Assembly: GCA_026075535.2 (NCBI GenBank)
Contig: AP026544.2
Coordinates: forward strand, 11,780,001 to 11,844,000
DNA length: 64,000 nucleotides
From: Tricholoma matsutake
Taxonomy: Eukaryota; Basidiomycota; Agaricomycetes; Agaricales; Tricholomataceae
Reading direction: 5' to 3'
Below, piece after piece: positions 3,790 through 55,573 of this stretch. Every line of letters starts with the position of its first letter. The stretch's first letter is position 1. The position numbers and the translations under genes are program-made. The notes beneath the pieces are model-generated. The model worked only from the letters and a program-made list of their open reading frames with translations. It searched no databases and was not told the origin of the DNA.

Positions 3790-3827
3790 AAATCAGGGAG
3801 GTCTTTACACTCCCCCACCTTTCATAG

Positions 3828-4100
3828 TGGACTCCGACTGGAGTCTGACTGGACTGACCGGAGTCCGACCGGAGTCTGACTGGAGTCCACTGGGACTGGT
3901 CACCAGCGAACTGCCTGCAAAGTTGCCAGTCCAGTCCCAGTCCAGTCTGACCAGACTCCAAGTGGAATCCACTCAAACACTGGATTCCACTCGGACTGGT
4001 CCAGTGGAGTCCAGTGGAGTCCAGTTGGAGTCCAGTTGGAGTCCGGTTGGAGTCTGGTTGGAGTTCGAGTGGAGTCCGAGTGGAGTCCAGTTGGATTCCG
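3828..4100 (+). repeat. H1 left subterminal repeat array
   Basis: Dense short repeats of GGAGTCC and its complement GGACTCC, with spacers of a few bases such as GGAGTCCAGTT. Many hAT elements have arrays of short transposase-binding motifs just inside their TIRs, so binding is the likely role. Only the repetition itself is visible. Confidence 0.8.
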
Positions 4101-4121
4101 CTGAAAAAGTGTGTAAGAAAA

Positions 4122-4191
4122 GGAATGGAACCCAGATCCCCATAGGTTGCTTATGTAATCAATCATGATGCACAATATAACTGTTACGCCA
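4122..4191 (-). promoter_or_regulatory. Possible outward-facing tRNA-like Pol III promoter near left end of H1
   Basis: Read on the minus strand there is an A-box-like TGGCGTAACAGT (about ten of twelve positions fit TRGCNNAGYNGG), and about 60 nt on a B-box-like GGGTTCCATTCC. Spacing suits an internal Pol III promoter and it would fire toward the left end. H3 keeps only part of the A-box region, so this is weaker than the right-end copy. It is not a functional tRNA. Confidence 0.35.
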
Positions 4192-4433
4192 CAGTACCTT
4201 GTGTAAGGCATCATCTACTTGCATTAGGTACCGTGGTGCAGCTGTGTATGACAAAGCATATTGCCGTGTCATCAAATGTGCCAGCTCATCACTCACCACC
4301 ACCACCATCGATGCCGCCTCCCTCCCTCCTCTCTCTACCACCACCACCACTGCATGGACACCCACTGCCACTGCTCCCACACCCAATCTGCCATCATCAC
4401 CACCTGCAAACGAGCCGAATGGATGGGCCCTAG

Positions 4434-4498
4434 GTAAGTTTTTTTTTGTTTGCTTTTTGTTTTTATAAACTAACTAACCAGTTTCTTTAGTTTTCTAG
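4434..4498 (+). other. Intron-like unit 1 of H1
   Basis: GTAAGT donor at 4434, T-rich body, CTAAC-like branch site, and AG at 4497-4498. At 65 nt it has the size of an agaric spliceosomal intron. It follows GGGCCCTAG and precedes GTTATAAACTACTGGTAACG. The unit is nearly repeated at 4595-4658, which suggests a local duplication. No coding frame is evident on either side, so it may be the intron of a non-coding transcript. Confidence 0.5.
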
Positions 4499-4559
4499 GT
4501 TATAAACTACTGGTAACGACGCCACCACCCACAAACGAGCCGACTGGATGGAACGCAGA

Positions 4560-4658
4560 CCCAAACAATGCAGATCGCATTGTTTGGGCCCTACGTAAGT
4601 TTTTTTTGTTTGCTTTTTGTTTTTATAAACTAACTAACTCATTTCTTTTGTTTTGTAG
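4560..4658 (+). other. Hairpin plus intron-like unit 2 of H1
   Basis: A perfect 12-bp stem (CCCAAACAATGC at 4560-4571, GCATTGTTTGGG at 4577-4588, 5-nt loop) ends six bases before a GTAAGT donor at 4595. The intron-like body is T-rich and ends in AG at 4657-4658 (64 nt). The same arrangement, with other stem sequences, occurs at 9261-9361, 9682-9771 and 35700-35792. Confidence 0.6.
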
Positions 4659-4720
4659 GTTCTACTCTACTGGTAACGACCGACAGCCAGACGCAAGACA
4701 ACCCCACACACCCACCCCAT

Positions 4721-5245
4721 GCCTGCGAGCCCCTGCTCGTAGGGTGGATCGTGAGTGTCACCAGGACCCCCAGAACGCAAAGCAATGGGGCCAACGACAC
4801 ACCACCCACCTCCAGCCCCTTGAGCAACTGCTCGGGGGGTGGGTCACAGGTGGAATGGAGGTGATTATGGCGAACTACGACAGGGCAATGCCGACGCCAA
4901 CACGGAACGACGGGGATCAACCCAGACCCAACGACACCCATGCCAGCCCCCTCCTCCCTGTCCAAACGGGATGTGAGGGTGTCGATAAAGGGTAGGAGAT
5001 GGCAGAGGGGTAACGGGAGACCTGCGGAGCAGGATACCCACCTGGTAAGCACCCACCTACCCCCTCCCTCACATGCCACATCACTGACCCCTCCCCCCAA
5101 CCCCTCTGAACTAGGAGACCCGCAAAACTGACAACACACCCACCCCACACCGACGAGCACCTGCTCGAAGGGTGGATGGTGGGTAGACCAGGGCTACAAC
5201 AACCACGGCACCCATCCCCATGCCTACGAGCCTCTGCTCATAGGG
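4721..5245 (+). repeat. GAGC-NNYT-GCTC hairpin array in H1
   Basis: Four spaced short palindromes: 4721-4744 (GCGAGC-CCCT-GCTCGT), 4816-4839, 5148-5173 and 5223-5245. Each has a stem of about 8-9 bp closed by a 4-nt loop ending in CT and is usually followed by GGGTGGAT. The same motif recurs across the window. Function unknown. Confidence 0.7.
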
Positions 5246-5332
5246 TGGATGATGGGTGCGGCTTGCTACAGCAACAGACGCATGCGAGGAGGGGTGGGCG
5301 ATGACACCCACCCCAGACTGCATCCCCCAACC

Positions 5333-5580
5333 CCCCCTCCCCCGCATTTTGCGTGGGGAGGGGTCTTTATTATTTTTGATTTATCTCTGCCCCCCCCTCG
5401 CACTGAATGCGAGGGGTATATATATTGTAGTACTTATGAATCCCCCCCTCACGCTGAACGTGAGGGGTTTAGTTTTTTAGGTACATAGTAGTAATCCCCC
5501 CCCTCTTGCAAGATGCGAGAGGGGTTTTTTTTTGTTTATTATTATACTATACCCACTCCCTTGTGTCCTACACGAGGGAT
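5333..5580 (+). repeat. GC-rich tail hairpins of H1
   Basis: Successive imperfect palindromes of the form CCCCTCGCA-nnn-TGCGAGGGG, separated by A/T-rich spacers (near 5333-5357, 5391-5416, 5447-5469, 5497-5526, 5565-5580). H2 (7136-7282), H3 (10144-10234), H5 (46878-46950) and H6 (55122-55240) carry the same block next to the tRNA-like region, so it is part of the family's tail. Confidence 0.65.
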
Positions 5581-5689
5581 GTGGTTAATTAAAATTTTTT
5601 GATCTTAATTGTTTAAAAAATGCCTCCTCGAAGAATATGAAAAGTTGAGTCATAAATAAACCTTATATTGATCCCCAATAAATCTCCTG

Positions 5690-5762
5690 TGGCTCAAGTG
5701 GTTGAGCACACTTGTTTGGTTTGTCATGTGATTCCTTATGGTGAGGTCTTGAGTTCAATTCC
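5690..5762 (+). promoter_or_regulatory. tRNA-like Pol III promoter in H1 tail
   Basis: A box TGGCTCAAGTGG at 5690-5701 and B-box-like GAGTTCAATTCC at 5751-5762, about 60 nt apart, oriented toward the right TIR. A D-arm-like GCTC..GAGC is visible, but the T stem does not pair, so this is a tRNA-derived promoter like a SINE head rather than a tRNA gene. Related copies lie in H2, H3, H4, H5 and H6 at the same place relative to the end. Confidence 0.6.
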
Positions 5763-5861
5763 TGCAGTACACAAATTTATTTTGTGGGTACTTTATGAAA
5801 TTCACCAAGTCCGAAGTCCTTTGAGCTCATATCTAATTGACTTATCATTTGGTTGCACTTG

Positions 5862-6045
5862 GACTCCAGTTGGACTCCACTCGGACTCCACTCAGACTCC
5901 ACTTGGACTCCAGTCGGACTCCAGTTGGACTCCAATGGGGGATTAAACTCTACATGACTTAGTGTAGTTCAATTGGACTCCACTCGGACTCCACTCGGAC
6001 TCCAGTGGACTCCGGTCAGTCCAGTTGGAGTCCACTAGGACAGGT
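5862..6045 (+). repeat. H1 right subterminal repeats, 11-bp phased
   Basis: Between 5863 and 5939 seven consecutive units of 11 bp (GGACTCCAGTT, GGACTCCACTC and variants) follow one another without gaps, about one helical turn each. Further copies lie at 5970-6035 in both orientations. Probable transposase-binding array. Confidence 0.75.
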
Positions 6046-6072
6046 GGGGGACTGAAAAGTACTGAAATCAGG

Positions 6073-6564: not shown

Positions 6565-7733
6565 AACTAACTAATTGTACTTTATTAAATTTAGGTTGTA
6601 CACTAATGGTGATGACTGCCGAATGCAAAGAACCCCTGAAACAGATGACGCATCCACCCCATGCCTGTGAGCCTCTGCTCATAGGGTGAATTGTGAGTGT
6701 GTGCAGGTGACAACAATGATGACACCGCTGCCTACCAGCACCAGAACCCCCAGAACACAAAGCACAGCCACCAACCATGATGGACGACAATGACAGGGCC
6801 AACAACACACCACCTGCCTCCAGCCCCATGAGCCACCGCTCAGGTGGTGGATTGTGGGTGGAATGGCAATGATGATGAGGGGAACCAGGAACATGCTCCA
6901 ACCACAATGCACCAACCATGACACTGAGGATGACACACCAAGGATGATGCACCCAGGGCAGTGGGGCTGCATCCCCTCCCCCTCCCCTGCATACATTTTG
7001 TGTGGGTGAGGAGATTTTCTTTTTTATTTATTTATGATGAGGTAAGGCCATAGATATTTTTTTTCTTGTCTTATTTCTTTTACCATGATGACACATGCAG
7101 GATGACAGCCACCACAATGAGACACCACCAGGCCGCCCCCTCCCCTGTGTTTTGCATGGGGAATTTGTTTTTTGTTTTCTATATATATTACTACCCCCTC
7201 GCCCATGTAGAATGTGGGTGAGGGGATTTTCTTTTTTATTTATAATTGCCACCTTCCCCTTGCATTCAATGCAGTGGGTTTTTAATATAATGAAAGTAGC
7301 TAATAAATTTTATTTGATTTTAAATATATAACAAAGCACCTCCTTCGAGAGGGTTTAAATAATTGAGTTTGAGTTTGAGTTTTGTGTGTCATACATAAAC
7401 TTTATATTAGTAACAAATAGTTCTCCTGTGGCTCAACTGGTTAAGCATGCTTGTTTGTTATGCACTGGTGACATGAGGTCTTAAGCTCAATCCTTGCTCT
7501 GCACAATCTTATTTTGTAGGCACTTCATGACTTTCATACAGTCTGAAAAGCTTGGAACTAATAAGATGTTAACTTGATGGCATGGATCCTGCACATTCTC
7601 TGCAGACTAGCACAGATTCCACATAGTCTGTGTGGACTAGCATGGACTCTGCATAGTCCATACAGATCTGTGTGGAGTCCATGTAATTCCATATGGATCT
7701 GTGTGGAACATATGGGGGAGTGTAAATTACTGC
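6565..7733 (+). mobile_element. H2: truncated member of the H family
   Basis: Inserted in copy 1. The right end reads GGGGGAGTGTAAATTACTG, the TIR variant shared with H5 and H6. The left end is missing: the element starts inside an intron-like unit (AACTAACTAATTG then AG at about 6593). About 160 bp of gypsy sequence, relative to copy A, is gone at the junction. It contains GAGC/GCTC hairpins (6663-6686, near 6825), GC-rich hairpins, a tRNA-like promoter and diverged subterminal repeats built on TGGACTC and GGATCTGTGTGG. Confidence 0.65.
7429..7493 (+). promoter_or_regulatory. tRNA-like Pol III promoter in H2 tail
   Basis: A box TGGCTCAACTGG at 7429-7440 and a decayed B box (AAGCTCAATCC) ending at 7493, facing the right TIR as in H1. 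Confidence 0.5.
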
Positions 7734-8727: not shown

Positions 8728-9260
8728 TCCCATCTGAGGTCTTTACACTCCCCCCCCCAATCCGAGCGGAGTCTGCTTGGACACTCGGACTGTACTCGGA
8801 CTGTCTGAGGACTTTGCTCGGACTTTGCTTGGACTTCTTTGGCTGAAAGTCCTGCCAAAGTAGATGTCCAGTCCGAGCTGAGTCCGAGTGTCCAAGTGGA
8901 GTCCGAGTGGACCAGCACTCGTACAGTCCTAGGACTGTCTGAGTTGCTTATATAATTGACTGAAAAATCAGTGGCTACAATTCTCATAGTCACATGATAA
9001 AGTACATTTAGGGCAACAATATAACTGTTAGACTAAAGTATCATTATAGGTAGATAGTTTTATCTCTCTATGTACTGCCCTGGCTGTGATGACAAATCAA
9101 CACAGCCGCATCGCCAACGATGATGCCAGCTCATCATCGATCATAACCAACCACCACCACCACCACCACTCGATGATGACGCCTCCCTCCCATGTCCCAC
9201 TGCTGCCACTGCCCCCTGAACACCCAACAGTCACGGGCCCATGCCAGCACACAATGAAAT

Positions 9261-9361
9261 GGGTCCAAACGACTCTATCGTCATTTGGGCCCCAGGTGAG
9301 TTTTTTCTTTTTTCTTTTCCCATGTTTTCTTTAAGCTAACACATTTTTTCATTAATTATAG
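9261..9361 (+). other. Hairpin plus intron-like unit in H3 (first)
   Basis: Stem CCAAACGAC / GTCATTTGG with one C-A mismatch that a CpG transition explains, then GGCCCCAG and a GTGAGT donor at 9296. T-rich body; AG at 9360-9361; 66 nt. Confidence 0.5.
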
Positions 9362-9681
9362 GTTATATCTATACTGTAGCAGCACAATGACCCCCAAACC
9401 ACCAAACAAGGAACAATGACGAGACCATGACCCAGCACCCACCCCTGCCAGTGCAAGCAACTGCTCGCATGGGGGAGAGCAGCTGCTAATGATGATGACG
9501 ATGACAGGGAACGATGACACCACCTGCCCCAGCCCTATGAGCCACTGCTCATAGGGTGGATGATGGGTGGAATGACAACAATTAGGAGACCCCAACAACA
9601 GCTAGCACCCCCCATAACTGCCACAGGCAACTGCTTGCAGGGTGGATGAGAGTGCAGGTACTGACAGGGAGACAAAAAAGG

Positions 9682-9771
9682 CCCAAGAGACATCAACATC
9701 TCTTGGGTCCTAGGTAAGTTTTTTTTTTCCTTTTCTCATTTCATTTTTTGATGCTAACCAACTTTTTTTAG
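9682..9771 (+). other. Hairpin plus intron-like unit in H3 (second)
   Basis: Perfect 9-bp stem CCCAAGAGA (9682-9690) / TCTCTTGGG (9699-9707), then GTAAGT at 9714 and AG at 9770-9771. The stem sequence differs from that at 4560 and 9261, yet pairing is kept. Confidence 0.55.
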
Positions 9772-9864
9772 ATACAAACTACTACTAGTGATGATGACGA
9801 TGGGGGGACACCACCAACACCACTGCTGTGAGCCCCTGCTTGCAGGGTGGAAGGTGAGGGTGAA

Positions 9865-10047
9865 GAGACAAGGGGGAAGGGAGACAAGGGGGAAGGGAGA
9901 CAAGAGGGAAGGGAGATGAGGGGGAAGGGATACAAGAGGGAAGGGAGATGAGGGGGATGGGAGACAAGAGGGAAGGGAGACAAGGGGGAAGGGAGACAAG
10001 AGGGAAGGGAGATGAGGGGGAAGGGAGACAAGAGGGAAGGGAGATGA
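9865..10047 (+). repeat. 16-bp minisatellite inside H3
   Basis: About 11 tandem copies of a purine-only-strand unit close to GGGAGACAAGGGGGAA, alternating with GAGGG and GATGAGG variants. Repetitive reading frames here are an artefact of the repeat. Confidence 0.85.
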
Positions 10048-10318
10048 CAACGAGTGGGGACACCCACGATGACACCCGCTCCACACCTACGAGCATCTGC
10101 TCATGGTGGGTGTTTTTAATTTATTTTTATAATTGATAGTTATGCCCCCTCCCCTCAAGCTTGCAAGGGGAGGGCTTACTATCATACATATTAATTACCC
10201 ACATTAATTACCCCTCACACAGATGCGAGGGGGTCAATTTAATAATCTATTCATGATATATAACAAATTAGATTTCAGTAATAAATAGATATAATGTATA
10301 TAACTTTAAATGACTACT

Positions 10319-10391
10319 TGGCTTAAGTGATAGAGTGTGCATGTTTCATTGTCATGTGATTCCTAGTCCAGAAGGCTGTTGGTTCAATTCC
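10319..10391 (+). promoter_or_regulatory. tRNA-like Pol III promoter in H3 tail
   Basis: A-box-like TTGGCTTAAGTGATAGAG from 10319 and a consensus B box GGTTCAATTCC at 10381-10391, facing the right TIR. Confidence 0.6.
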
Positions 10392-10596
10392 TGCTGTGCA
10401 CACATCATTTTGTGAGACTTATAAGACTTTCTCTAAGACTGGAACTCGGACTTTACTTGGTCAGTACTTTAAAAGGTGTAAATAAATGCACAATTGATGT
10501 TGTCCAAGCAAAGTCCGAGTGCAGTCCGAGTGTCCGAGTGTGTCCAAGCGGAGTCCACTTGGACTGGGGGGGGGAGTGTAAAGTACTGTCCCATCT

Positions 10597-19820: not shown

Positions 19821-22800
19821 AGGTTTCCCCATTGGTGACCCAGAATTGTTACAATGTATTAGTATCTGAGGAAACCCAGAGTAAATCAGAAAAGGAAATC
19901 GAGGAGGACTACAACTGTTGCGAATCACGCAACAAAGAAAATTGTCACATGTCATTTCCGAAAACCCCTAAATTCTTTATTCACTCTGTGCAAATAGAAC
20001 CCAAAATCACCTTGACTGTGGGACTGAAGACAGTGGACACGCATGCAGCTATTGATGTGGAAGTGTTGCTTGACAGTGGTGCTACAGGATTATTTATTAA
20101 TCAATCCTTAATTACCAGAAACGGTATAAACACATGCAAGCTGGCACAACCTATAATGGTGTACAATATTGACGGAACAGTCGATCATGGAGGAACTATC
20201 AAGGAGGAGGTGACTATGGTACTAAAGTATCAGGAGCATCAGGAACGAGCCGTATTCGAAGTGTGTGATCTTGGGAAAACCAATCTAATAATAGGATGTC
20301 CATGGTTACGGAAGCATAATCCCGAAATTGATTGGAAAACTGGGAAAGTACAAATGACTCGTTGTCCTAAGGAATGTAATGTGTATGGGAGGAAGATGAA
20401 GAAAGAAAAAAGGAAAGAGAAAGAGAAAGAACGTCCGAGGAAGTATTCTGTTACGATGGAGGAAGTGGAGGATGAGGAAATGCCAAATGGGGAAGTTCTG
20501 ATCATGATCAAGAAAGAAGAGCAGAAGCAAACCTTTAGAGCAGTTCGTGGAGGACAGTCATGGGACAAGAATATCGTGAAGGTGGAGAAGCCAGTGGAGG
20601 AATGGGTGCCAAAAGTGTATCATGAACATTTGTCAGTGTTCCAAAAGAAGGAGTCTGAGCAAATGCCGGTGCGGAAGCCATGGGATCATGCGATTGAGAT
20701 GAAGCCAGGGTTTGTGCCAAAGAAGTCGAAGGTATATCCATTATCTCTGATGGAACAAGAAGAAGTGGATGCATTCCTGAAGGAGCAATTGTGCAAAGGA
20801 TACATACGACCTTCGAAATCACTGCAGACATCACCAATATTCTTCGTGCCCAAAAAAGACCAAAGGAAGAGGATGTGTACTGATTATAGGTATCTGAATG
20901 AGTGGACAGTGAAGAACGTGTACCCCCTGCCGTTGATCTCAGAAATAATTGATAAGGTGGGAAAAGCCAAGGTCTTTACAAAATTGGATTTACGATGGGG
21001 ATACAACAATGTATGAATAAAGAAAGGAGATGAGTGGAAGGCTGCATTTGCCATGCATCGAGGATCCTTCGAGCCACTTGTCATGTTTTTTGGGATGACT
21101 AATAGTCCCCCAACCTTTCAAAATATGATGAACAACATTTTCAAGGATGTAATAGACAAAGTCGTGGTAATAATATTTATTGACAACATTCTGATATTCA
21201 CAGAGGATGAAGAGAATCATGAGGCGATAGTGCAGGAGGTGTTATGGAGGTTGGCGGAGAATGATCTATTTTTGAAACCAGAGAAGTGCATGTTTGGGGC
21301 AAGTGAGATCGAGTTCCTAGGATTATTGATCGGCCCTGATGGGATCAAAATGGATCCGATCAAGGTACAGGCGATCACAGATTGGCCTGCGCCCACCCGT
21401 GTCAAGGAGGTTCAAGCCTTCTTGGGACTCGCAAATTATTATCGTTGCTTTGTGCACAATTTTTCTAAAATTGCTGCACCCTTACATAACCTTACATGAA
21501 AGGGAGTAGTGTGGAGGTGGGGAGAGCAGCAGCAGACAGTGTTTGAGGAGTTAAAGAGGAAGTTTGTGGAGGGACCAATATTAGCCCCAGTAGATTTCAC
21601 ATGCCCTTTGCAAGTGGAATCCGATGCATCCAATTTTGCTACTGGAGCGGTATTATCAATGCTGTGCGAAGATGACAAATGGCATCCTTGTGCATACTTG
21701 TCAAAAGGGTTGAATGATGTGGAGAGGAATTATGATGTGCATGACAAAGAGATGTTGGGGATAATACAAGCATTGGAGGCATGGAGGCATTATTTGGAGG
21801 GATGTACGCATCAAATTGAGATCTGGACGGATCATCAAAATCTGCAATACTTCATGTCCGCTAAAAAGCTTAATCGCTGGCAAGTGCGTTGGGCACTATT
21901 CCTATCGCATTTCAACTTTCACTTGGTCCATAAAGTGGGAAACTTAATGAGGAAAGCAGATGCCTTATCCAGACGTATTGATCATAAAAGGGGGGTGGAG
22001 GAGGACAATAAAAATGTTACCTTACTCAAACCCAAATACTTTCGCATTTGCGCTATGCGTCAAGGGCATCTATTAATAGATAGCTCGGAAATGGAAATGT
22101 TGTCCAAAATTAGACAATGTTCGGAAATGGATGATGAAGTAGTGGAAGCCGTGAAAGCTCTGAAGGGAGAGAAGAAAGGTAATATCAAAGGAGACGAATG
22201 GGCTGAGGAACAAGGGTTGGTGTTGTTTCGAGGAAAAGTGTATGTACCAAAGGATCAGGATTTGCGAAGGGAGATTGTCCAGTTAGATCACAATACGCCG
22301 ATTGCCGGACACCCAGGAAGATGGAAGACGTTGGAATTAGTAATGAGAAATTATTGGTGGCCTGGAATTTCGAAGTATGTGTTGGGGTATGTGGATGGAT
22401 GTGATACGTGCATGAGGGGGAAGAAATTTCCAGAGAAACCTGCAGGAAAATTAATGCCAAACCCTATACCTAAAGCGCCATGGCGAGATATATCTGTGGA
22501 TTTTATTACTGGATTACCTGAGGCTCAAGGGTATGATGCAATATTCATAGTATGTGACCGCTTTACAAAGGAGGTCCATATTATTCCTACTACTACAGAA
22601 ACCTCATCATTGGGCTTGGCGCGCCTCTGTCTAAATCAGGTATGGCGGTTACATGGCTTACCCGATACCATTATCTCCGATTGCAGACCACAATTTGCTT
22701 CTGTGTTTATGCAAGAACTAAACAACATATTGGGAATTCAAACTAAATTATCTATGGCATATCACCCACAGACTGATGGGCAGACAGAGAGAATGAATCA

Positions 22801-23599
22801 GGAGTTGGAGCAGTACCTACGTATGTTTGTCAACTACCGACAAGCCGACTGGCCCAAATGGTTGGCAATTGCCGAATTTTCCCACAATAACAAATTCCAT
22901 TCGGCTACTCGTATGTCACCCTTTTTCGTGAATTATGGATATCATCCTCGCATGGGAGTAGAACCCAGAAGGGAAGTCAAAGTACAGTCGGCAGAAGATT
23001 TTGTATCTAAGATGCAAAGGGTACAAGAGGAAGCAGAGGTGGCATTGAAGAAAGCATGTGATGACATGATGCGACATGCAGATCGTACTCGAGCATGCGC
23101 TCCAGAGTACAAAGTTGGTGACTTGGTATGGCTAAGTACCAAGGACCTGAATATTCCACGACCTTCGAAGAAACTTATGGAGAAACAAGTTGGCCCATAT
23201 GCGATCTCTAAAGTGATCTCGCCTAATGTGGTAGTGCTAAAATTACCCCAATCATTTAAGATTGATCCCGAGATTAACGTATCCTGCCTATGCCCTTACC
23301 GTCCGCCCACTATTCCTGCCCAACAAACTACTCCGCAACCTCTGATAATAGTAGAAGGTGCTTCAGAATACATAGTTGAAGAAATTCTAGACTCACGTCT
23401 TCGACGGAACAAATTGGAGTTCTTAATAAAGTGGAAAAACCATACCGATGAAAATAATTCGTGGGAACCCAAAGAGAATTGTAAGCAAGCGCATATCGCG
23501 ATCGCCCAATTCTTTACACGTAATCCGAATGCTCTGTGTCGCATTGCGAGAATGGTGTATGAGGGGATGAAATTCTGGCCTTACCAAAATTTCACATAG
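19727..23599 (+). pseudogene. Element A pol polyprotein, two stop codons
   Basis: One frame (-1 relative to gag), collinear from protease ([15 protein letters not shown] near 20070) through RT, RNase H (near 21600-21960), integrase (H..H..C..C near 22280-22420; DDE core 22490-22790 with QTERMNQELEQ) and chromodomain (23360-23490), ending in the family tail at 23599. Only two nonsense codons: TGA 21014-21016, in the place of Arg in YNNVRIKKGDEW, and TGA 21497-21499. The RT motif is FIDN (21182-21187, GAC AAC), so the second catalytic Asp is lost. 19727 is the first ATG in this frame, not necessarily a start; frameshifting from gag is more likely. Confidence 0.9.
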
Positions 23600-24718: not shown

Positions 24719-25102
24719 ATGCCTACCAGCACCCCCCAAAGCCGACAACACACCCACCCCATGCCTACAAGCCTCTGCTCACAGGGTGGATGGGTGGTGA
24801 GAGCCCATGCCAACAAGCAGCTGCTCATCGGGTGGATGGCGGGCACACCAGGGATAAGATGACCACAGCACCCATCCCCATGCCTATGAGCAGCTGCTCG
24901 TAGGGTGGATGATGGGTGCGGCTTGCTATGGTGACAGATGCATGTGAGGAGGGGTGCGATGACACCCACTCCCTCATGTCCTACACAAGGGATGTGGTTA
25001 ATCCAAATTTTTTTATCTTAATTGTTTGAAAAATGCCTCCTCGAAGAATATGAAAAGTTGAGTCATAAATAAACCTTATATTGATCCCTAATAAATCTCC
25101 TG

Positions 25103-25175
25103 TGGCTCAAGTGGTTGAGCACACTTGTTTGGTTTGTCATGTGACTCATTATGGTGAGGTCTTGAGTTCAATTCC
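25103..25175 (+). promoter_or_regulatory. tRNA-like Pol III promoter in H4 tail
   Basis: A box TGGCTCAAGTGG at 25103-25114, B-box-like GAGTTCAATTCC at 25164-25175; almost identical to H1. Confidence 0.6.
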
Positions 25176-25233
25176 TGCAGTACACAAATTTATTTTGTGG
25201 GTACTTTATGAAATTCACCAAGTCTGAAGTCCT

Positions 25234-25414
25234 GGAAGGAAGCCAAAGCTTCCAACACTCAGGGACTGAGAACTATAAGGAACCTAATATATTTTGAGGG
25301 GGGAATCTAGAATACAGTACAAGTACTCGAAGTATAGACTATATACTATCAGAATAACATGTGATAACTGAGTGGCATGTGATAATGTAATGATGATGTA
25401 AGAGGCACTCTTAC
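25234..25414. mobile_element. 181-bp insertion with 7-bp duplication inside H4
   Basis: Absent from the otherwise matching H1 sequence near 5830. Flanked by AAGTCCT on both sides (25227-25233, 25415-25421). A small hairpin (GGAAGC-CAAA-GCTTCC) lies at its left end. Ends show only weak inverted similarity. Class unknown. Confidence 0.65.
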
Positions 25415-25643
25415 AAGTCCTTTGAGCTCATATCTAATTGACTTATCATTTGGTTGAAATGCATTCCAGTTGGACTCCAGTTGGACTCCAGTTGGACTCC
25501 AGTTGGACTCCAGTGGGGGATTGAACTCTACATGACTTAATGTAGTTCAATTGGACTCCACTCGGACTCTGCTTGGACTCCAGTTGGACTCCAGTCAGTC
25601 CAGTCGGAGTCCACTAGGACAGGTGGGGGACTGTAAAGTACTG

Positions 25644-35370: not shown

Positions 35371-36570
35371 TAGGGATGCCGAAGTTCGGTCCAGAACCTC
35401 GGTTCGAACCTTGAACCCCTGAACTGAACCTGCGGTTCTGGTTCGGTCTGGTTCTGGTTCTCTCCCTCCTCAGTAGGTTCGGTCCCAGGTTCGGCACCTC
35501 TCGCATTTATGTGAACTCGGTTCGAACGGGTTTGAACCGAGAACCGACGCAAGGTAAAATTGGCGAAAATCCTGTCCCGCGCAACTGAGTTTCAAAATAC
35601 TTGCTACTTTTGTTCAAGTTACTCGCGCAAACAAAGCCATACCACTCCACCATCAACAACTCTTCATGGTTACAAACGAACCACCTCGCGTGCAACACTG
35701 GCCCAAATGATGTGTTTGTCGTTTGGGCCCCTGTAAGTTTCTCTCTCTCTTTTTATTATACTAGCTAATTATTTTGCTTTATCTTTTTACAGTAATGATG
35801 TGATGATGACCACGAAAACGGGCATCCACGCACCTCAAATGACAAACGACGAATGAAAAGGGGGGAACAGCAGCTCCGACATATGAGGGATGGCGCTGTG
35901 TAGTGGGTGCCAGGTATGTACCCCCACCCTCATGCCTGCCATGCCACGCTAACGGCTCCCCCAAACCCCACCAAACCAGGAATTACGACACAACAACACC
36001 CAGAACTGGCAAGGAACAACCAGCACCCGCCCCATGCCTATGAGCCTCTGCTTGTAGGGTATCGTGGGTGCCAGCAACGTCGGGCAATGCCAACAGATGA
36101 TTACCCCACCATAACAAAAAGAGGAAGACGGCGCCAGGGATGGACGACAACGATGCTGAACAACACGGTACCCACCCCCACGTCTATGAGCACCCGCTCT
36201 AGGGTGGATCGTGGGTGTCTACCACGAGGGAGGAGGGAGACAGCGCCCCAGCACCTGTTTCCCACCACTGCGAGCACTTGCTCACAGGGTGGACCGGGTG
36301 CTAACAGCCATGCCCCCCTCCCACAACGATGAACAGTGGCACCCACCCCCACGCCTATGAGCCACTGCTCATAGGGTGAATCACATTTTTTTGCTAACCA
36401 CGTAGGTTCTAAGGTTCGAACCAAGTTCGAACCAGAACCAAACCTGCCAAACCTGGTTCTGTTGGTTCTGGTTCGCGGTTCTGCCCTCTCCCTGCCCACC
36501 ATCGGGTTCAGGTTCGCGGTTCGGAGAGATCTCTCAGAGAACCAGACCGAACCAAACTTTGGCATCCCTA
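35371..36570. mobile_element. hAT-like element with TAGGGATGCC ends carrying H-type cargo
   Basis: 1200 bp. Flanks GTCGACAT (35363-35370) and GTTGACAT (36571-36578) are an 8-bp duplication differing by one CpG transition. Ends TAGGGATGCCGAAGTTCGG and, reversed, TAGGGATGCCAAAGTTTGG are typical of hAT elements. Subterminal arrays consist of GGTTC and GAACC motifs (35385-35545, 36405-36540), unrelated to the GGACTCC arrays of H1. Yet the interior has the same modules as the H family: a hairpin plus intron-like unit (35700-35792) and four GAGC/GCTC hairpins (36037, 36180, 36266, 36350). No transposase. Confidence 0.85.
35700..35792 (+). other. Hairpin plus intron-like unit in the TAGGGATGCC element
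   Basis: GGCCCAAATGA (35700-35710) pairs with TCGTTTGGGCC (35719-35729) with one U-G wobble; GTAAGTTT at 35733; AG at 35791-35792 (60 nt, pyrimidine-rich 3' end). Confidence 0.55.
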
Positions 36571-46443: not shown

Positions 46444-47360
46444 CAGTAATTTACACTCCCCCACCTATTCTGATCCGACTCTCTGGAATCCAGTTATTCT
46501 GACTGGATTCCACTGGAGTCCAATTATTCCAACCAGATTCCACTGGAGTCCAGTTATTCTGACCAGATTCCAGTTATTCCAGACTCCAAGTTATGCATGT
46601 TTAGTTTAATTAACTGACAGTATACAACAGTAGAAAGTCAAGTCAAACTTTGAGTCCTGAAGTTCCTCAGTTGCCTACAAAATTAATTGGTGCAAAGCAA
46701 GGATTGAACTCAAGGCCTCATGATAAAGTAATCATGTGATAAACCAAACACAATGCTCAACCAGTTGAGCCACAGGAGACTTATTAACTAGCTATTATAA
46801 AGTTTATTTCTGACACTCAAACTCACAACTTCATTTTTTTGAAGTAGATAATTAAGATCGATTTTAAAAAAATTTAAGCCCATCCCTCGCAGGGGATGAT
46901 TTGATTATATATATACATAAAACTAACCCCTCACATTCAGCACGAGGGGGGAGGTAAAAACGTCAAGAAAAAAAAAACCGAGAATGAGAGACATTCCTCT
47001 CTTTGTTTAACCCCCACTGCCTCTCAGCTTAGTTTTTATTTATTTATTTTGTTTGTGGCAAACCATATGTACAGGATCATATACAGTATTTTACCTATTC
47101 CTAGCATACCCCCAGAGCACCTCCAATGTATCTAGGACCTGGATGCAACACCTATGTATATATTTATTATGTAACCAATTTTATTACTCCTTCCTTCCTA
47201 TCTTCCAGCCTTAATTCTAATATTGTTCTCCAGTGTGGTGGCAGGCATGTAAGTTGGGGCTGTGGGTGTTGATGAAGTGGTGGTGGTGGTAGAGTGATGG
47301 TTGATGAGGGAGGGTGGCATTGTTGTTGAGCTGAGTGAGTGATGATTGATGAGCTGGCAG
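46444..47360 (-). mobile_element. H5: H-family element, inverted (right edge approximate)
   Basis: The outer TIR CAGTAATTTACACTCCCCC is at 46444. Inside it are subterminal TGGATTCCA / TGGAGTCCA repeats (46466-46590), a minus-strand tRNA-like promoter, the GC-rich tail hairpins (46878-46950), and cargo matching the reverse of H1 4283-4360 (near 47270-47355). So its tail faces left. No opposite TIR or duplication was found. Confidence 0.55.
46701..46772 (-). promoter_or_regulatory. tRNA-like Pol III promoter in H5 tail
   Basis: Minus strand: A box TGGCTCAACTGG (46761-46772) and B-box-like GAGTTCAATCC (46701-46711), again facing the nearby TIR. Confidence 0.55.
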
Positions 47361-49043
47361 TGCAAGTCCCTCTTCAGCATTTCCTGAGACTCATGTATTG
47401 CGCAAAGCCTGCTGGGTGAATAGTGTTCACTTACCATTAACTGTTTGATTATGTTGTTCCAAGGAACCTTACCTTGAGTCCCCAGAAGTTGAGGTGTGAC
47501 ATAGAAAGCATGCACCGTGAAAGCTAGCTTGGTGAACTGTGTCACTACCTATGGTTTTAGCAGGGTCCTCAGTGCCCTCATTGATCACTCCAAGTCCACG
47601 ATGGAAATGACGTTGTTAGATTCATAATATAGAAATATGAGTGTATGTCCAAAGAAAGTCATATGCCTTGTATTTAATTCGATGAAAATATCACTAGAGT
47701 ATGCCCCTAATCCTGAGACACAAGGTCTTCTAGCTGATCTACACCTCCCTTGTGCCTGGACCACGCTGATATGATAACTGTTGAACTACCTTCTCACCAC
47801 CCCAATGACAAAAAAGTTAGCCTTGATACTTAATAAAGAAAGGATATTCCTCAAGGATAGACCACCAGCACAGGCCCATGAAGGTCTGAAAAGCCTAGTC
47901 AGGATAGAGTCTGTTGTACATGCTCACAGGTGGATTGACATCGATGACAACCTCTCTCATATCCTGGTGGTAAAGGCGAGTGATATATGACTTATTTGTG
48001 TGTGGGCTAGGAGGTCAGATACAAAGGAGATATGGTCCACATTCTTCAATGCAGTCTAGTTCTGGGTCAGGACCATATATCTGATAATGGTGAGACAAAG
48101 GTTGCAGTGCATGAGGGTGTGAAACTCATCCCCCACCTCTCTCCCATGCCCTTGGGACGCTATAGGGCAGGCCCAAAATGGAAGTCCATCGTGTTGTGTG
48201 GCTGACATGTGACTGGGCAATTTGTCTTGTGAGGTAACTGCGGCATGAGTTAGTTACCTTCGACGCAAAGTCTAATGACATATGCACAAATAAGAGATTT
48301 GATACTAAAAGGTATCATCATTTGCTGAGTGGTTGTGGCCATGGTGGTGGTGGTGTGTTCAGAAGTGGTTGTATTGTTGTTTATTTGCTCAGAATTGCGA
48401 ACATCCTTGTCTCAAAACCACAATCATGATGACATGGATGTCAACCACCATCCCAGGACCCCTCCCCCATCTATTTTCAGGGTTATTTCTTGACATTCTC
48501 CCACATCTCCTTCTTTGCTCTCCCTACCATGGGCTCAAGGGGATGAGTTCAAGAGACTGATGATAGTGGCCTCGAGACGCAAAGATTGGCCTGCTTGCTT
48601 AATCAGTGCTGGGGATGACAAAGAAGACCTGCAAAATGTGTTGATTTCAGTTCTTTCTGCCCTTGTGTGGTTAGTACTGTCAGAGATGGCTCTGCAAAAG
48701 AGCATTATCATTCCTGCAATGTCCCAGGCTATGGAGTTTGTACAGAGCTTGAATGACTGTGAGGTTGAGGAATGGAAGAATGTGGTACAGAATGGAGATT
48801 GGGTGGGCCTGATTACACATCGTACATGCCTTTCTTGCTTCCAATGATATATATTTGTAATTGGTACTGGCACAGCAAAACTTCAGAAACCAGCTGAAGA
48901 TCTGTCTGTTGCTGGACAAGCTGAAGAGATTGGGAACATGCAAGCTTTGTTTTTCTTTATCTCTCCATTTACTTACTGTACCTCTTTACTTACTGTACCT
49001 ATAGTTAAACTCTGATTACACTAGGATTGATTTTCTATAGTCT
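47361..49043. other. Unassigned sequence with short coding-like pieces
   Basis: Frames of 60-110 codons on the plus strand (47781-47990, 48515-48847) show no family I know. The second (EFKRLMIVASRRKDWPACLI) precedes the transposon-like segment at 49044 and may belong to it. Confidence 0.3.
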
Positions 49044-54545: not shown

Positions 54546-55099
54546 GTGGTAGAGTCAGTGCGAGATGTTGGTGTTGTGTTCTGTGACTGCAGGGGGGGTT
54601 CAACTCCCTCCATGCTCAATTTGGGGGCTTGGGGCTGATGCTGGGAGGCTGTGGGCAGTCCTGGGAGCATGTACCACCATTTGGGTGGTGTTGGGTCTCA
54701 TTTCACAAGGGAATCGACTGGGGGCTTCATCGTTGTTTGCTGTGACATGGCAGCAGTGGAAGGGGGGTTCTGGCCAGAAACAAGAGCTGGGAGGGGTTTG
54801 TTCTCCATTTGGCTAGCTGCCTCATTGGTACTGGGTGTGGTTTGGGTGGTCAAGTCAATGCTGGGTGCTGTCATCATGTTTTTCGATGAGTGGATGTGTT
54901 CATCATCGAGCAGCTCCATTTGTAGGGCGGCACACCAATGTTCAGGGGTGTTGTTGGTCTGCACAGTCCTTTCATCGGTCATGGGAGCTGCCTGGGTGCT
55001 AGCATCAATCCAAGTGGTCGTTTTGGGGTCAGTTTGGAATTCAGCATCATCAAGGAGGACAGCACCTTGCCACAACTCACAGATGGATTTTTTAATATG
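54546..55099. other. Unassigned, with a Ser/Thr/Gln-rich minus-strand frame
   Basis: Minus strand 54698-55075 is open for 125 codons with repeats of the type TQT and STQA/TTQT; low complexity, no family recognised. The left edge of H6 may lie here. Confidence 0.3.
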
Positions 55100-55573
55100 T
55101 ATTTAGACAATGTAGTTACCTCCCCTGTTGTGTTCAGTGTGAGAGGGGTGCTATATATATATTCTCCCTCTCACAAGATGCAAGAGGGAGGGTTTTTAAC
55201 TTATGTATATCATCCCCACATTCCTTGCATTCAATGTGAGGGATGTGGTTAAATTAAAATTTTTTGATCTTAATTATCTACTTCAAAAGAATGTATTTAT
55301 GAGTTTGAGTATCATAAATGAACCTTACATTAATAATCAATAATTCTCCTGTGGCCCAGTTGGTTGAGGACACTTGTTTGGTCTGTCATGTGATCACTTC
55401 ACTGCAAGGTCTTGAGTTCAATCCTTACTCTGTACAAATTTATTTTGTAGGCACTTGGAGAACTTTGGACTCAAAATTTGACTCTCAATTATGGTAAACT
55501 TCTAAGTTGAACATGTGGAATAACTGGAGTACAACTGGAATAACCAGAATCAGTGGGGGAGTGTAAATTACAG
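55100..55573 (+). mobile_element. H6: tail end of an H-family element
   Basis: GC-rich hairpins (55122-55147, 55163-55193, 55208-55240), a tRNA-like promoter, weak subterminal GGAATAAC/TGGAGT repeats and the terminal GGGGGAGTGTAAATTACAG. No left end or duplication found. The tail faces right, opposite to H5. Confidence 0.6.
55352..55424 (+). promoter_or_regulatory. tRNA-like Pol III promoter in H6 tail
   Basis: A box TGGCCCAGTTGG (55352-55363) is a perfect match to TRGCNNAGYNGG; B-box-like GAGTTCAATCC at 55414-55424. Confidence 0.6.

What the first reader, a model, noticed from the sequence alone, without database searches (positions are those of the whole stretch)
3798..6064. A modular non-autonomous hAT-like family with five kinds of internal structure
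H1 has 8-bp duplications and TIRs of a hAT-like element but, instead of a transposase, an ordered set of structural modules: phased subterminal repeats, hairpin plus intron-like units, GAGC/GCTC hairpins, GC-rich hairpins and an outward tRNA-like promoter. H3 repeats most of the order, and H2, H4, H5 and H6 repeat parts of it. The order and orientation are seen directly. That the modules act in transcription or mobility is inference. I recall a Tricholoma element, megB1, said to carry a Pol III-like domain; it should be compared before calling this new.
Basis: partly seen in the sequence, partly recalled or inferred. Interest (0 to 1): 0.9.

Follow-up and report, generated by a model that had tools for sequence, protein, structure and literature searches.

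The report
Mushroom transposons sharing a noncoding hairpin-intron cassette
A 2.3-kb mobile DNA element of the matsutake mushroom, found in dozens of closely related copies, carries no gene for moving itself but an ordered noncoding cassette of intron-like units and hairpins between two outward-facing, predicted tRNA-like promoters; related pieces of the cassette sit inside other transposons with different ends, so the cassette has likely been passed between transposon lineages, and the element is likely moved by a borrowed hAT-type enzyme.

Summary
The host assembly matches Tricholoma matsutake TMA_r1.1 in total and five contig lengths. H1 (3798-6064) is flanked by AAATCAGG twice; a related retrotransposon copy in the window shows the empty site. 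Of 39 further copies read, 33 have both ends; 24 of these have identical 8-bp flanks, 31 match at 7 or more of 8. Module order is not random: six complete elements of four lineages repeat it. I add: (1) an outward tRNA-like unit also at the left end (both ends in 26 of 40 copies, inward in 0); (2) a stem ends 1-4 nt before the 5' splice site in 13 of 17 intron-like matches; (3) the hairpin-intron plus GAGC cassette also sits beside a hAT transposase gene (L073 group) and inside a second element here (35371-36570) whose ends belong to a hAT family with transposase copies. So related cassettes occur in three chassis. Against strong functional claims: copies decay mostly by CpG loss, without RNA-specific bias in stems or a dip in CpG loss near the tRNA-like units, and the interior does not look coding. 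No transposase with H1's own ends was found in partial searches. By its description megB1 is different (Alu-like, rDNA spacer).

The parts
3790..3797 (.). left target-site duplication AAATCAGG
3798..3820 (+). left terminal inverted repeat GAGGTCTTTACACTCCCCCACCT
   Evidence: its first 18 bases have 963 exact matches genome-wide
3828..4099 (.). left subterminal phased 11-bp repeats (3828-3893, 3999-4099)
4110..4201 (-). left tRNA-like unit, outward (box A, box B, TTTT); the family consensus matches both box patterns without mismatch
4434..4498 (+). intron-like unit 1 (GTAAGT..CTAAC..AG); its hairpin is lost in this copy but present in the family consensus
4560..4658 (+). hairpin (4560-4588) directly before intron-like unit 2 (4595-4658)
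4717..4747 (+). GAGC/GCTC hairpin 1
4811..4843 (+). GAGC/GCTC hairpin 2
5045..5114 (+). C-rich intron-like stretch (GTAAGC..CTGAC..CTAG); a counterpart was seen by eye in 35371-36570
   Evidence: read; not tested statistically
5145..5175 (+). GAGC/GCTC hairpin 3
5208..5259 (+). GAGC/GCTC hairpin 4 with outer stem
5334..5584 (+). five GC-rich hairpins (5334-5363, 5394-5416, 5445-5467, 5500-5524, 5553-5584), T-runs or AT-rich stretches after several
5684..5784 (+). right tRNA-like unit, outward (box A, box B, TTTT)
5856..6013 (.). right subterminal phased 11-bp repeats (5856-5934, 5975-6013)
6042..6064 (-). right terminal inverted repeat (reads CAGTACTTTTCAGTCCCCCACCT from the end inwards)
6065..6072 (.). 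right target-site duplication AAATCAGG
6605..7732 (+). H2: left-truncated relative (left limit approximate) with 2 GAGC hairpins, right tRNA-like unit and right TIR
8736..10588 (+). H3: complete element of another lineage, 8-bp TSD TCCCATCT; its left tRNA-like unit lacks box B
24733..25643 (+). H6: H1-family copy truncated on the left (left limit approximate), with GAGC hairpins, right tRNA-like unit and right TIR
35371..36570 (+). second chassis: element with TAGGGATGCC ends (TSD GTCGACAT / GTTGACAT, 7 of 8) carrying one hairpin-intron and three GAGC hairpins; no tRNA-like unit found
46444..47440 (-). H4: truncated relative with TIR and tRNA-like unit (inner limit approximate)
55080..55573 (+). 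H5: truncated relative with GC-rich hairpins, tRNA-like unit and TIR (left limit approximate)

Best explanation
H1 is a 2,267-bp transposon flanked by an 8-bp target duplication and lacking a recognisable transposase gene, likely moved in trans by a hAT-type transposase, whose interior is a noncoding cassette (predicted introns, with a hairpin abutting the predicted 5' splice site, then GAGC hairpins, then GC-rich hairpins) framed by two predicted outward Pol III units. Shown: ends, TSDs, empty site, copy family, shared order and orientation of modules in four lineages, and related hairpin-intron/GAGC cassettes beside a hAT transposase gene and between the ends of a separate hAT family. Inferred: the cassette is transcribed left to right and spliced; the tRNA-like units are transcribed by Pol III and stop at the conserved T-run before the subterminal repeats; the cassette moved between hAT-type chassis by recombination or gap repair and persists in source copies because a structured RNA or DNA hairpin helps the element multiply. 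Individual copies appear to decay neutrally after insertion.
For: 8-bp TSDs and ends in 33 of 39 copies read (24 at 8/8, 31 at 7/8 or better); empty site. Module order shared by H1, H3, L088a, L088b, L090 inner and L090 outer. tRNA-like units with a strict pattern in 40 copies: both ends outward 26, right only 11, left only 3, inward 0 (2 hits in the middle); 2 hits in 43,850 bases of other window sequence, 0.075 per shuffled copy. Right units of nine elements: identity box A 0.847, box B 0.775, T-run 0.824, rest 0.626; the 12 best of 135 ten-column windows lie on these three signals. A stem ending 1-4 nt before the donor in 13 of 17 intron-like matches (z -2.4 to -9.6). GAGC arms: 0.880 of cells pair against a maximum of 0.852 in 1000 re-dealings (27 distinct of 40 units). 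Cassette homology: 36k interior versus H1 score 87 against a maximum of 35 in 60 shuffles; L073 (hAT) versus H1 84 against 38; L073 versus 36k 66 against 41. hAT domain beside the cassette: (1.9e-13), one continuous repeat of 2.4 kb shared by L073 and L074 at 90%; full GAGC hairpins in 4 of 20 hAT loci and 0 of 20 KDZ loci, both strands. The 36k ends match hAT copies while its interior is not listed there.
Against: No H1-type end was found near hAT genes: 0 of 20 hAT loci with 1.5-kb flanks and 0 of 10 hAT hits on C1 within 6 kb inside a listed exact end; those lists are partial and leave out H1's own right-end type. Recalled hAT end consensus (YARNG) is not clearly met by GAGGT/CAGTA. In stems of 36 copies C>T and G>A at CpG are equal (279/1101 and 282/1099; outside stems 670/2304 and 539/2305), and double compensatory changes (71) lie within shuffles (mean 58.7, maximum 73), so no RNA-level constraint on copies is seen. 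CpG loss shows no dip near the tRNA-like units (bins 0.44-0.65). ARAGORN finds no tRNA; the best Rfam tRNA match has 18 bits, below the 29-bit cut-off. The strict tRNA-like pattern misses H2, H4, H5, one end of L088b and the left end of H3; all but the last were recovered by alignment or with a pattern widened after seeing them. 36k also scores above shuffles against reverse-complemented H1 (42 against 31), as hairpins would give. No RNA data.
Confidence: 0.6

Rival explanations
1. The modules are inert relics: one ancestral non-autonomous transposon happened to contain tandem repeats, captured introns and tRNA or SINE pieces, and the present lineages inherited them without any function.
For: Copies decay without sign of constraint; lineages are related in sequence; tandem duplication explains repeated hairpin and intron units; SINE pieces inside DNA transposons are known (MER6 with a V-SINE domain, abstract of PMC6887750); donor-hairpin covariation is only suggestive.
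Against: Pol III signals are the best conserved columns across nine right units, a stem abuts the donor in 13 of 17 intron-like matches, GAGC arms stay paired between diverged units, and the cassette occurs in three chassis.
Confidence: 0.27
2. The element is mobilised by a KDZ (Zisupton-type) or other transposase, not hAT.
For: Zisupton also makes 8-bp TSDs (passages of PMC12730594); KDZ hits are abundant here (165 matches with 150 of 831 candidates scored).
Against: 0 of 20 KDZ loci carry a full GAGC hairpin, against 4 of 20 hAT loci (the bare GAGC..GCTC core alone occurs in 9 KDZ loci); 0 of 21 KDZ hits on C1 lie within 6 kb inside a listed end, 3 lie outside one. Five MULE hits on C1 below 12.3 Mb, compared by eye, lie inside none.
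Confidence: 0.13

Closest known systems
hAT superfamily non-autonomous elements / hAT MITEs
   Same: 8-bp TSDs, short inverted ends, subterminal repeats (recalled as typical), no transposase, many copies
   Different: 2.0-2.5 kb in 28 of 33 copies; ordered noncoding cassette; outward tRNA-like units at both ends; partner transposase with the same ends not found
Helenus/Ajax/Cassandra (TRIMs with Pol III promoters)
   Same: small-RNA-gene-like promoter embedded in a non-autonomous mobile element, promoter motifs conserved without a functional tRNA in most families (passages of PMC10886601)
   Different: those are LTR retrotransposons with PBS/PPT and 4-5 bp TSDs for Helenus; H1 has inverted ends and 8-bp TSDs
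MER6 MITE with a V-SINE domain
   Same: DNA transposon carrying SINE-derived sequence (abstract of PMC6887750)
   Different: Mariner-derived; no module cassette and no paired outward units mentioned in the abstract
megB1 of Tricholoma and other Agaricomycetes
   Different: described as dimeric Alu-like, in rDNA IGS1 of many Agaricomycetes and outside the rRNA gene in section Caligata (passage of PMC10627285); sequence not compared
Zisupton/KDZ transposons
   Same: 8-bp TSD for Zisupton (passage)
   Different: no full GAGC hairpin in 20 KDZ loci; one of the 20 has an H1-type end nearby, facing away

Membership tests
hAT superfamily | 8-bp target-site duplication | tested here: met
   31 of 33 copies with both ends match at 7 or more of 8
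hAT superfamily | end sequence of the YARNG type (recalled) | tested here: inconclusive
   H1 ends read GAGGT and CAGTA; the 35371-36570 element has TAGGG
hAT superfamily | hAT transposase in a partner with the same ends | tested here: inconclusive
   none found for H1-type ends, but searches were partial; found for the 35371-36570 chassis
KDZ / Zisupton | 8-bp TSD | tested here: met
   TSD length for Zisupton
KDZ / Zisupton | KDZ transposase in a partner with the same ends | tested here: inconclusive
   0 of 21 C1 hits inside listed ends; one end lies beside a KDZ match in L062/L089 but faces away
SINE | no inverted ends, variable-length TSD, retroposed 3' tail (recalled) | tested here: not met
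   fixed 8-bp TSD and inverted ends
TRIM with Pol III promoter (Helenus type) | LTRs and 4-5 bp TSD | tested here: not met
   terminal matches are inverted and TSD is 8 bp
MITE | short (under about 0.8 kb, recalled), no internal genes | tested here: not met
   33 copies with both ends span 1.7-2.8 kb, 28 of them 2.0-2.5 kb
megB1 | dimeric Alu-like element of rDNA IGS1 | not testable with these tools
   only its description was available

The most novel reading that the evidence does not exclude
The hairpin-intron plus GAGC cassette is a noncoding RNA gene that behaves as a second-order parasite or helper: it is exchanged between hAT-type chassis with unrelated ends, is kept structured in source copies by selection, and lets transposase-less elements outnumber their transposase-bearing kin; H1-type elements add a Pol III unit at each end.
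Probability: 0.27. Interest if true: 0.88.

Novelty: new variant of a known kind. Interest (0 to 1): 0.68.

Why it matters
Non-autonomous DNA transposons are usually seen as ends plus filler. Here the filler keeps its architecture across diverged lineages and turns up in chassis with different ends, which makes it testable whether transposons can carry and trade noncoding genes. If the tRNA-like units work, Pol III promoter capture, known from SINEs and TRIMs, would extend to both ends of a cut-and-paste element. The family may also account for part of the 25.4% of the matsutake genome listed as unclassified repeats; that share was not measured.

Tried and rejected
Protein-coding cassette: not supported. 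In the longest open frame of the first exon-like stretch, non-CpG changes by codon position are 34, 60 and 41; the excess of indels in multiples of 3 there (25 against 4) sits in a CCA-rich tract; in the rest of the interior 53 of 59 indels are not multiples of 3. RNA-level selection on individual copies: not seen. Methylation shield by TFIIIC near the tRNA-like units: not seen. Known RNA family: nothing at gathering level in the window; the strongest sub-threshold hits are miRNA models on palindromes. KDZ and MULE as partners: no support. Ends of the L073-type hAT: not reached (L091, 801 bases upstream, shows no H1-type end by eye); five cassette copies of that type on C1 were compared by eye with the listed ends, and one (C1:11386614) has a left end 1.5 kb away, in an orientation that does not fit H1's. 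Donor-hairpin covariation: weak. The first run, with two misparsed rows, gave 0.780 against a mean of 0.693 and maximum of 0.840; after I retyped the arms of those rows, 47 of 2000 re-dealings reached the observed value. Rows left out: four of 40 copies (L039, L044, L046, L047; more than 10% from consensus); the GAGC units of L089. The GC-hairpin pattern under-detects (none in H1, although folds five). One search scanned one strand only; one search repeated it on both.

Full report
Where it is. The window lies in a 161,040,721-base assembly of 13 contigs. The total and five contig lengths (C8-C11 and C13) equal those printed for Tricholoma matsutake TMA_r1.1 in PMC10211490 (passages seen). That paper lists 25.4% unclassified repeats, 13 SINE copies and 2342 'small RNA' copies; which class holds these elements I do not know.

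The element. H1, 3798-6064, is flanked by AAATCAGG on both sides. Joining its flanks with one TSD gives 400 bases that match a related Ty3/gypsy copy at 22441-22843 from end to end (90%), so H1 inserted into a retrotransposon. Of 39 further copies read, chosen as the best matches, 33 have both ends; 24 have 8/8 TSDs and 31 at least 7/8. The commonest ends are GAGGTCTTTACACTCCCCCACCTT and, read inwards, CAGTACTTTACAGTCCCCCACCTG. The exact 18-base left end occurs 963 times in the genome and 0 times reversed. The 24 perfect TSDs lean weakly to CANNNNTG. Of 18 left-right end pairs within 15 kb on C1, 13 lie 1.05-2.53 kb apart.

Module order. In H1, H3, L088a, L088b, L090 inner and L090 outer the order is: TIR and subterminal repeats, left outward tRNA-like unit (broken in H3), hairpin-intron unit(s), GAGC hairpins, GC-rich hairpins, right outward tRNA-like unit, subterminal repeats and TIR. 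In the H3/L088a lineage hairpin-introns and GAGC hairpins alternate. H2, H4, H5 and H6 are truncated and keep the right part. All ten elements with a right end show the right tRNA-like unit, with a pattern widened after seeing them. The left unit is found by pattern in H1, L088a, L088b, L090 inner and L090 outer; H3 lost box B. L090 is a nested case: a complete element of another lineage sits in the left subterminal region of an H3-type element with TSD CTTCTTTG (read).

tRNA-like units. A strict pattern (box A at most 1 mismatch, box B at most 2, TTTT within 60 bases) finds outward units at both ends in 26 of 40 family copies, right only in 11, left only in 3, inward in 0, plus 2 hits in the middle; other window sequence gave 2 hits in 43,850 bases and shuffled consensus 0.075 per copy. 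The pattern misses H2, H4, H5 and the right unit of L088b, which alignment recovers. Across nine right units, box A, box B and T-run are conserved (0.847, 0.775, 0.824) above the rest (0.626), and the 12 best of 135 ten-column windows lie on them. They are not recognised as tRNA genes: ARAGORN none, Rfam tRNA 18 bits at best.

Hairpin-intron units. A scan for intron-like stretches gave 17 matches; in 13 of them, in H1 (consensus), H3, 36k, L088a, L088b, L090 inner, L090 outer and L073, a stem ends 1-4 nt before the GT donor, with z from -2.4 to -9.6 against shuffles. The four without are two inside the hAT gene region (L073, L074), one in L089, and the L074 counterpart of the L073 unit. Stem sequence varies with partly compensatory changes (A-T to G-C, C-G to A-T), but re-dealing arms reaches the observed pairing in 47 of 2000 trials, so covariation is only suggestive here. 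For GAGC hairpins it is stronger: 0.880 against a maximum of 0.852 in 1000; the units are related, so this is not a probability.

What the copies tell. In the interior, 1799 of 2416 differences from consensus are at CpG; about half of CpG sites are lost, without trend along the element (bins 0.44-0.65). In stems C>T and G>A at CpG are equal, so hairpins in single copies show no RNA-strand protection. Near-perfect pairing in the consensus therefore reflects source elements. The interior does not evolve like coding sequence.

Links to hAT. Four of 20 hAT-domain loci (L073, L074, L075, L083; one repeat family) carry full GAGC hairpins next to the 3' end of a transposase gene, convergent with it; none of 20 KDZ loci does, both strands searched (the bare core occurs in 9 KDZ loci). 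L073 also has the hairpin-intron and L083 GC-rich hairpins. L073 and L074 share modules and gene in one repeat of 2.4 kb at 90%; the domain scores 1.9e-13. A second element of this window, 35371-36570, has ends TAGGGATGCC, TSD GTCGACAT/GTTGACAT and one hairpin-intron plus three GAGC hairpins. Seven full-length copies, the window's included, are listed. Its outer 178 and 185 bases match other elements that enclose hAT domain hits: with both end regions C2:4045191-4046151, C3:8117017-8118060, C4:5839873-5840837 and C7:2961833-2962863; with one end region, the other end by pattern, C2:6141352-6145591 and C2:11095763-11100028. The C3 one, held as L081, has an 8-bp TSD ATAATTAC. In these only end regions are listed as matches, not the cassette, so in 35371-36570 the cassette lies between hAT ends where the others have transposase sequence; the search may miss diverged interiors. 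Alignment scores between cassettes of the three chassis exceed 60 shuffles each (87 against 35, 84 against 38, 66 against 41). Thus related cassettes sit in three chassis; how they moved is inference.

Not settled. Transcription, splicing and Pol III use are predictions. megB1 was compared only by its description. Paper searches in open-licence PMC listed no paper that by its title or abstract start describes such an element; Min et al. 2020 (PMC6980582) holds none of six terms such as hAT, MITE and SINE; Repbase and subscription journals were not searched.

Noticed in passing
window 25234-25414: H6, an H1-family copy, carries an extra stretch of about 180 bases between the tRNA-like unit and the right subterminal repeats (gap in the match), with a short repeated motif (AAGTC..) at its borders; possibly a small insertion.
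   Followed up: no
window 50138 and 60026: Two isolated GAGC/GCTC hairpins of the cassette type outside any recognised element; possible remnants of further chassis.
   Followed up: partly
L090 289-368: An almost perfect 80-base palindrome inside the left subterminal region of the nested element; sub-threshold miRNA-model hits in Rfam reflect it.
   Followed up: no
G000:C6:9332059-9332865 and C9:4795486-4795997: The right subterminal block (H1 positions 2059-2244) matches several times in a row beside some copies, so subterminal repeats seem to expand in tandem.
   Followed up: no
L022 and L023 (C2:12406441, C2:12376907): Two copies 30 kb apart in opposite orientation share the same TSD CAAGAGGG, so one insertion was probably copied by an inverted segmental duplication.
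   Followed up: partly
L091 (C8:99850-100650): Upstream of the L073 cassette lie a further intron-like stretch and a CCTCCTCCCTGTCCAAATGGGATGT motif resembling H1 near 4948, so the cassette of the hAT-bearing repeat may be longer than the part compared here.
   Followed up: partly
L080 and L086, position 1298: Another hAT family with a shared boundary TAAGGCTCCAACC, unlike H1-type ends.
   Followed up: no
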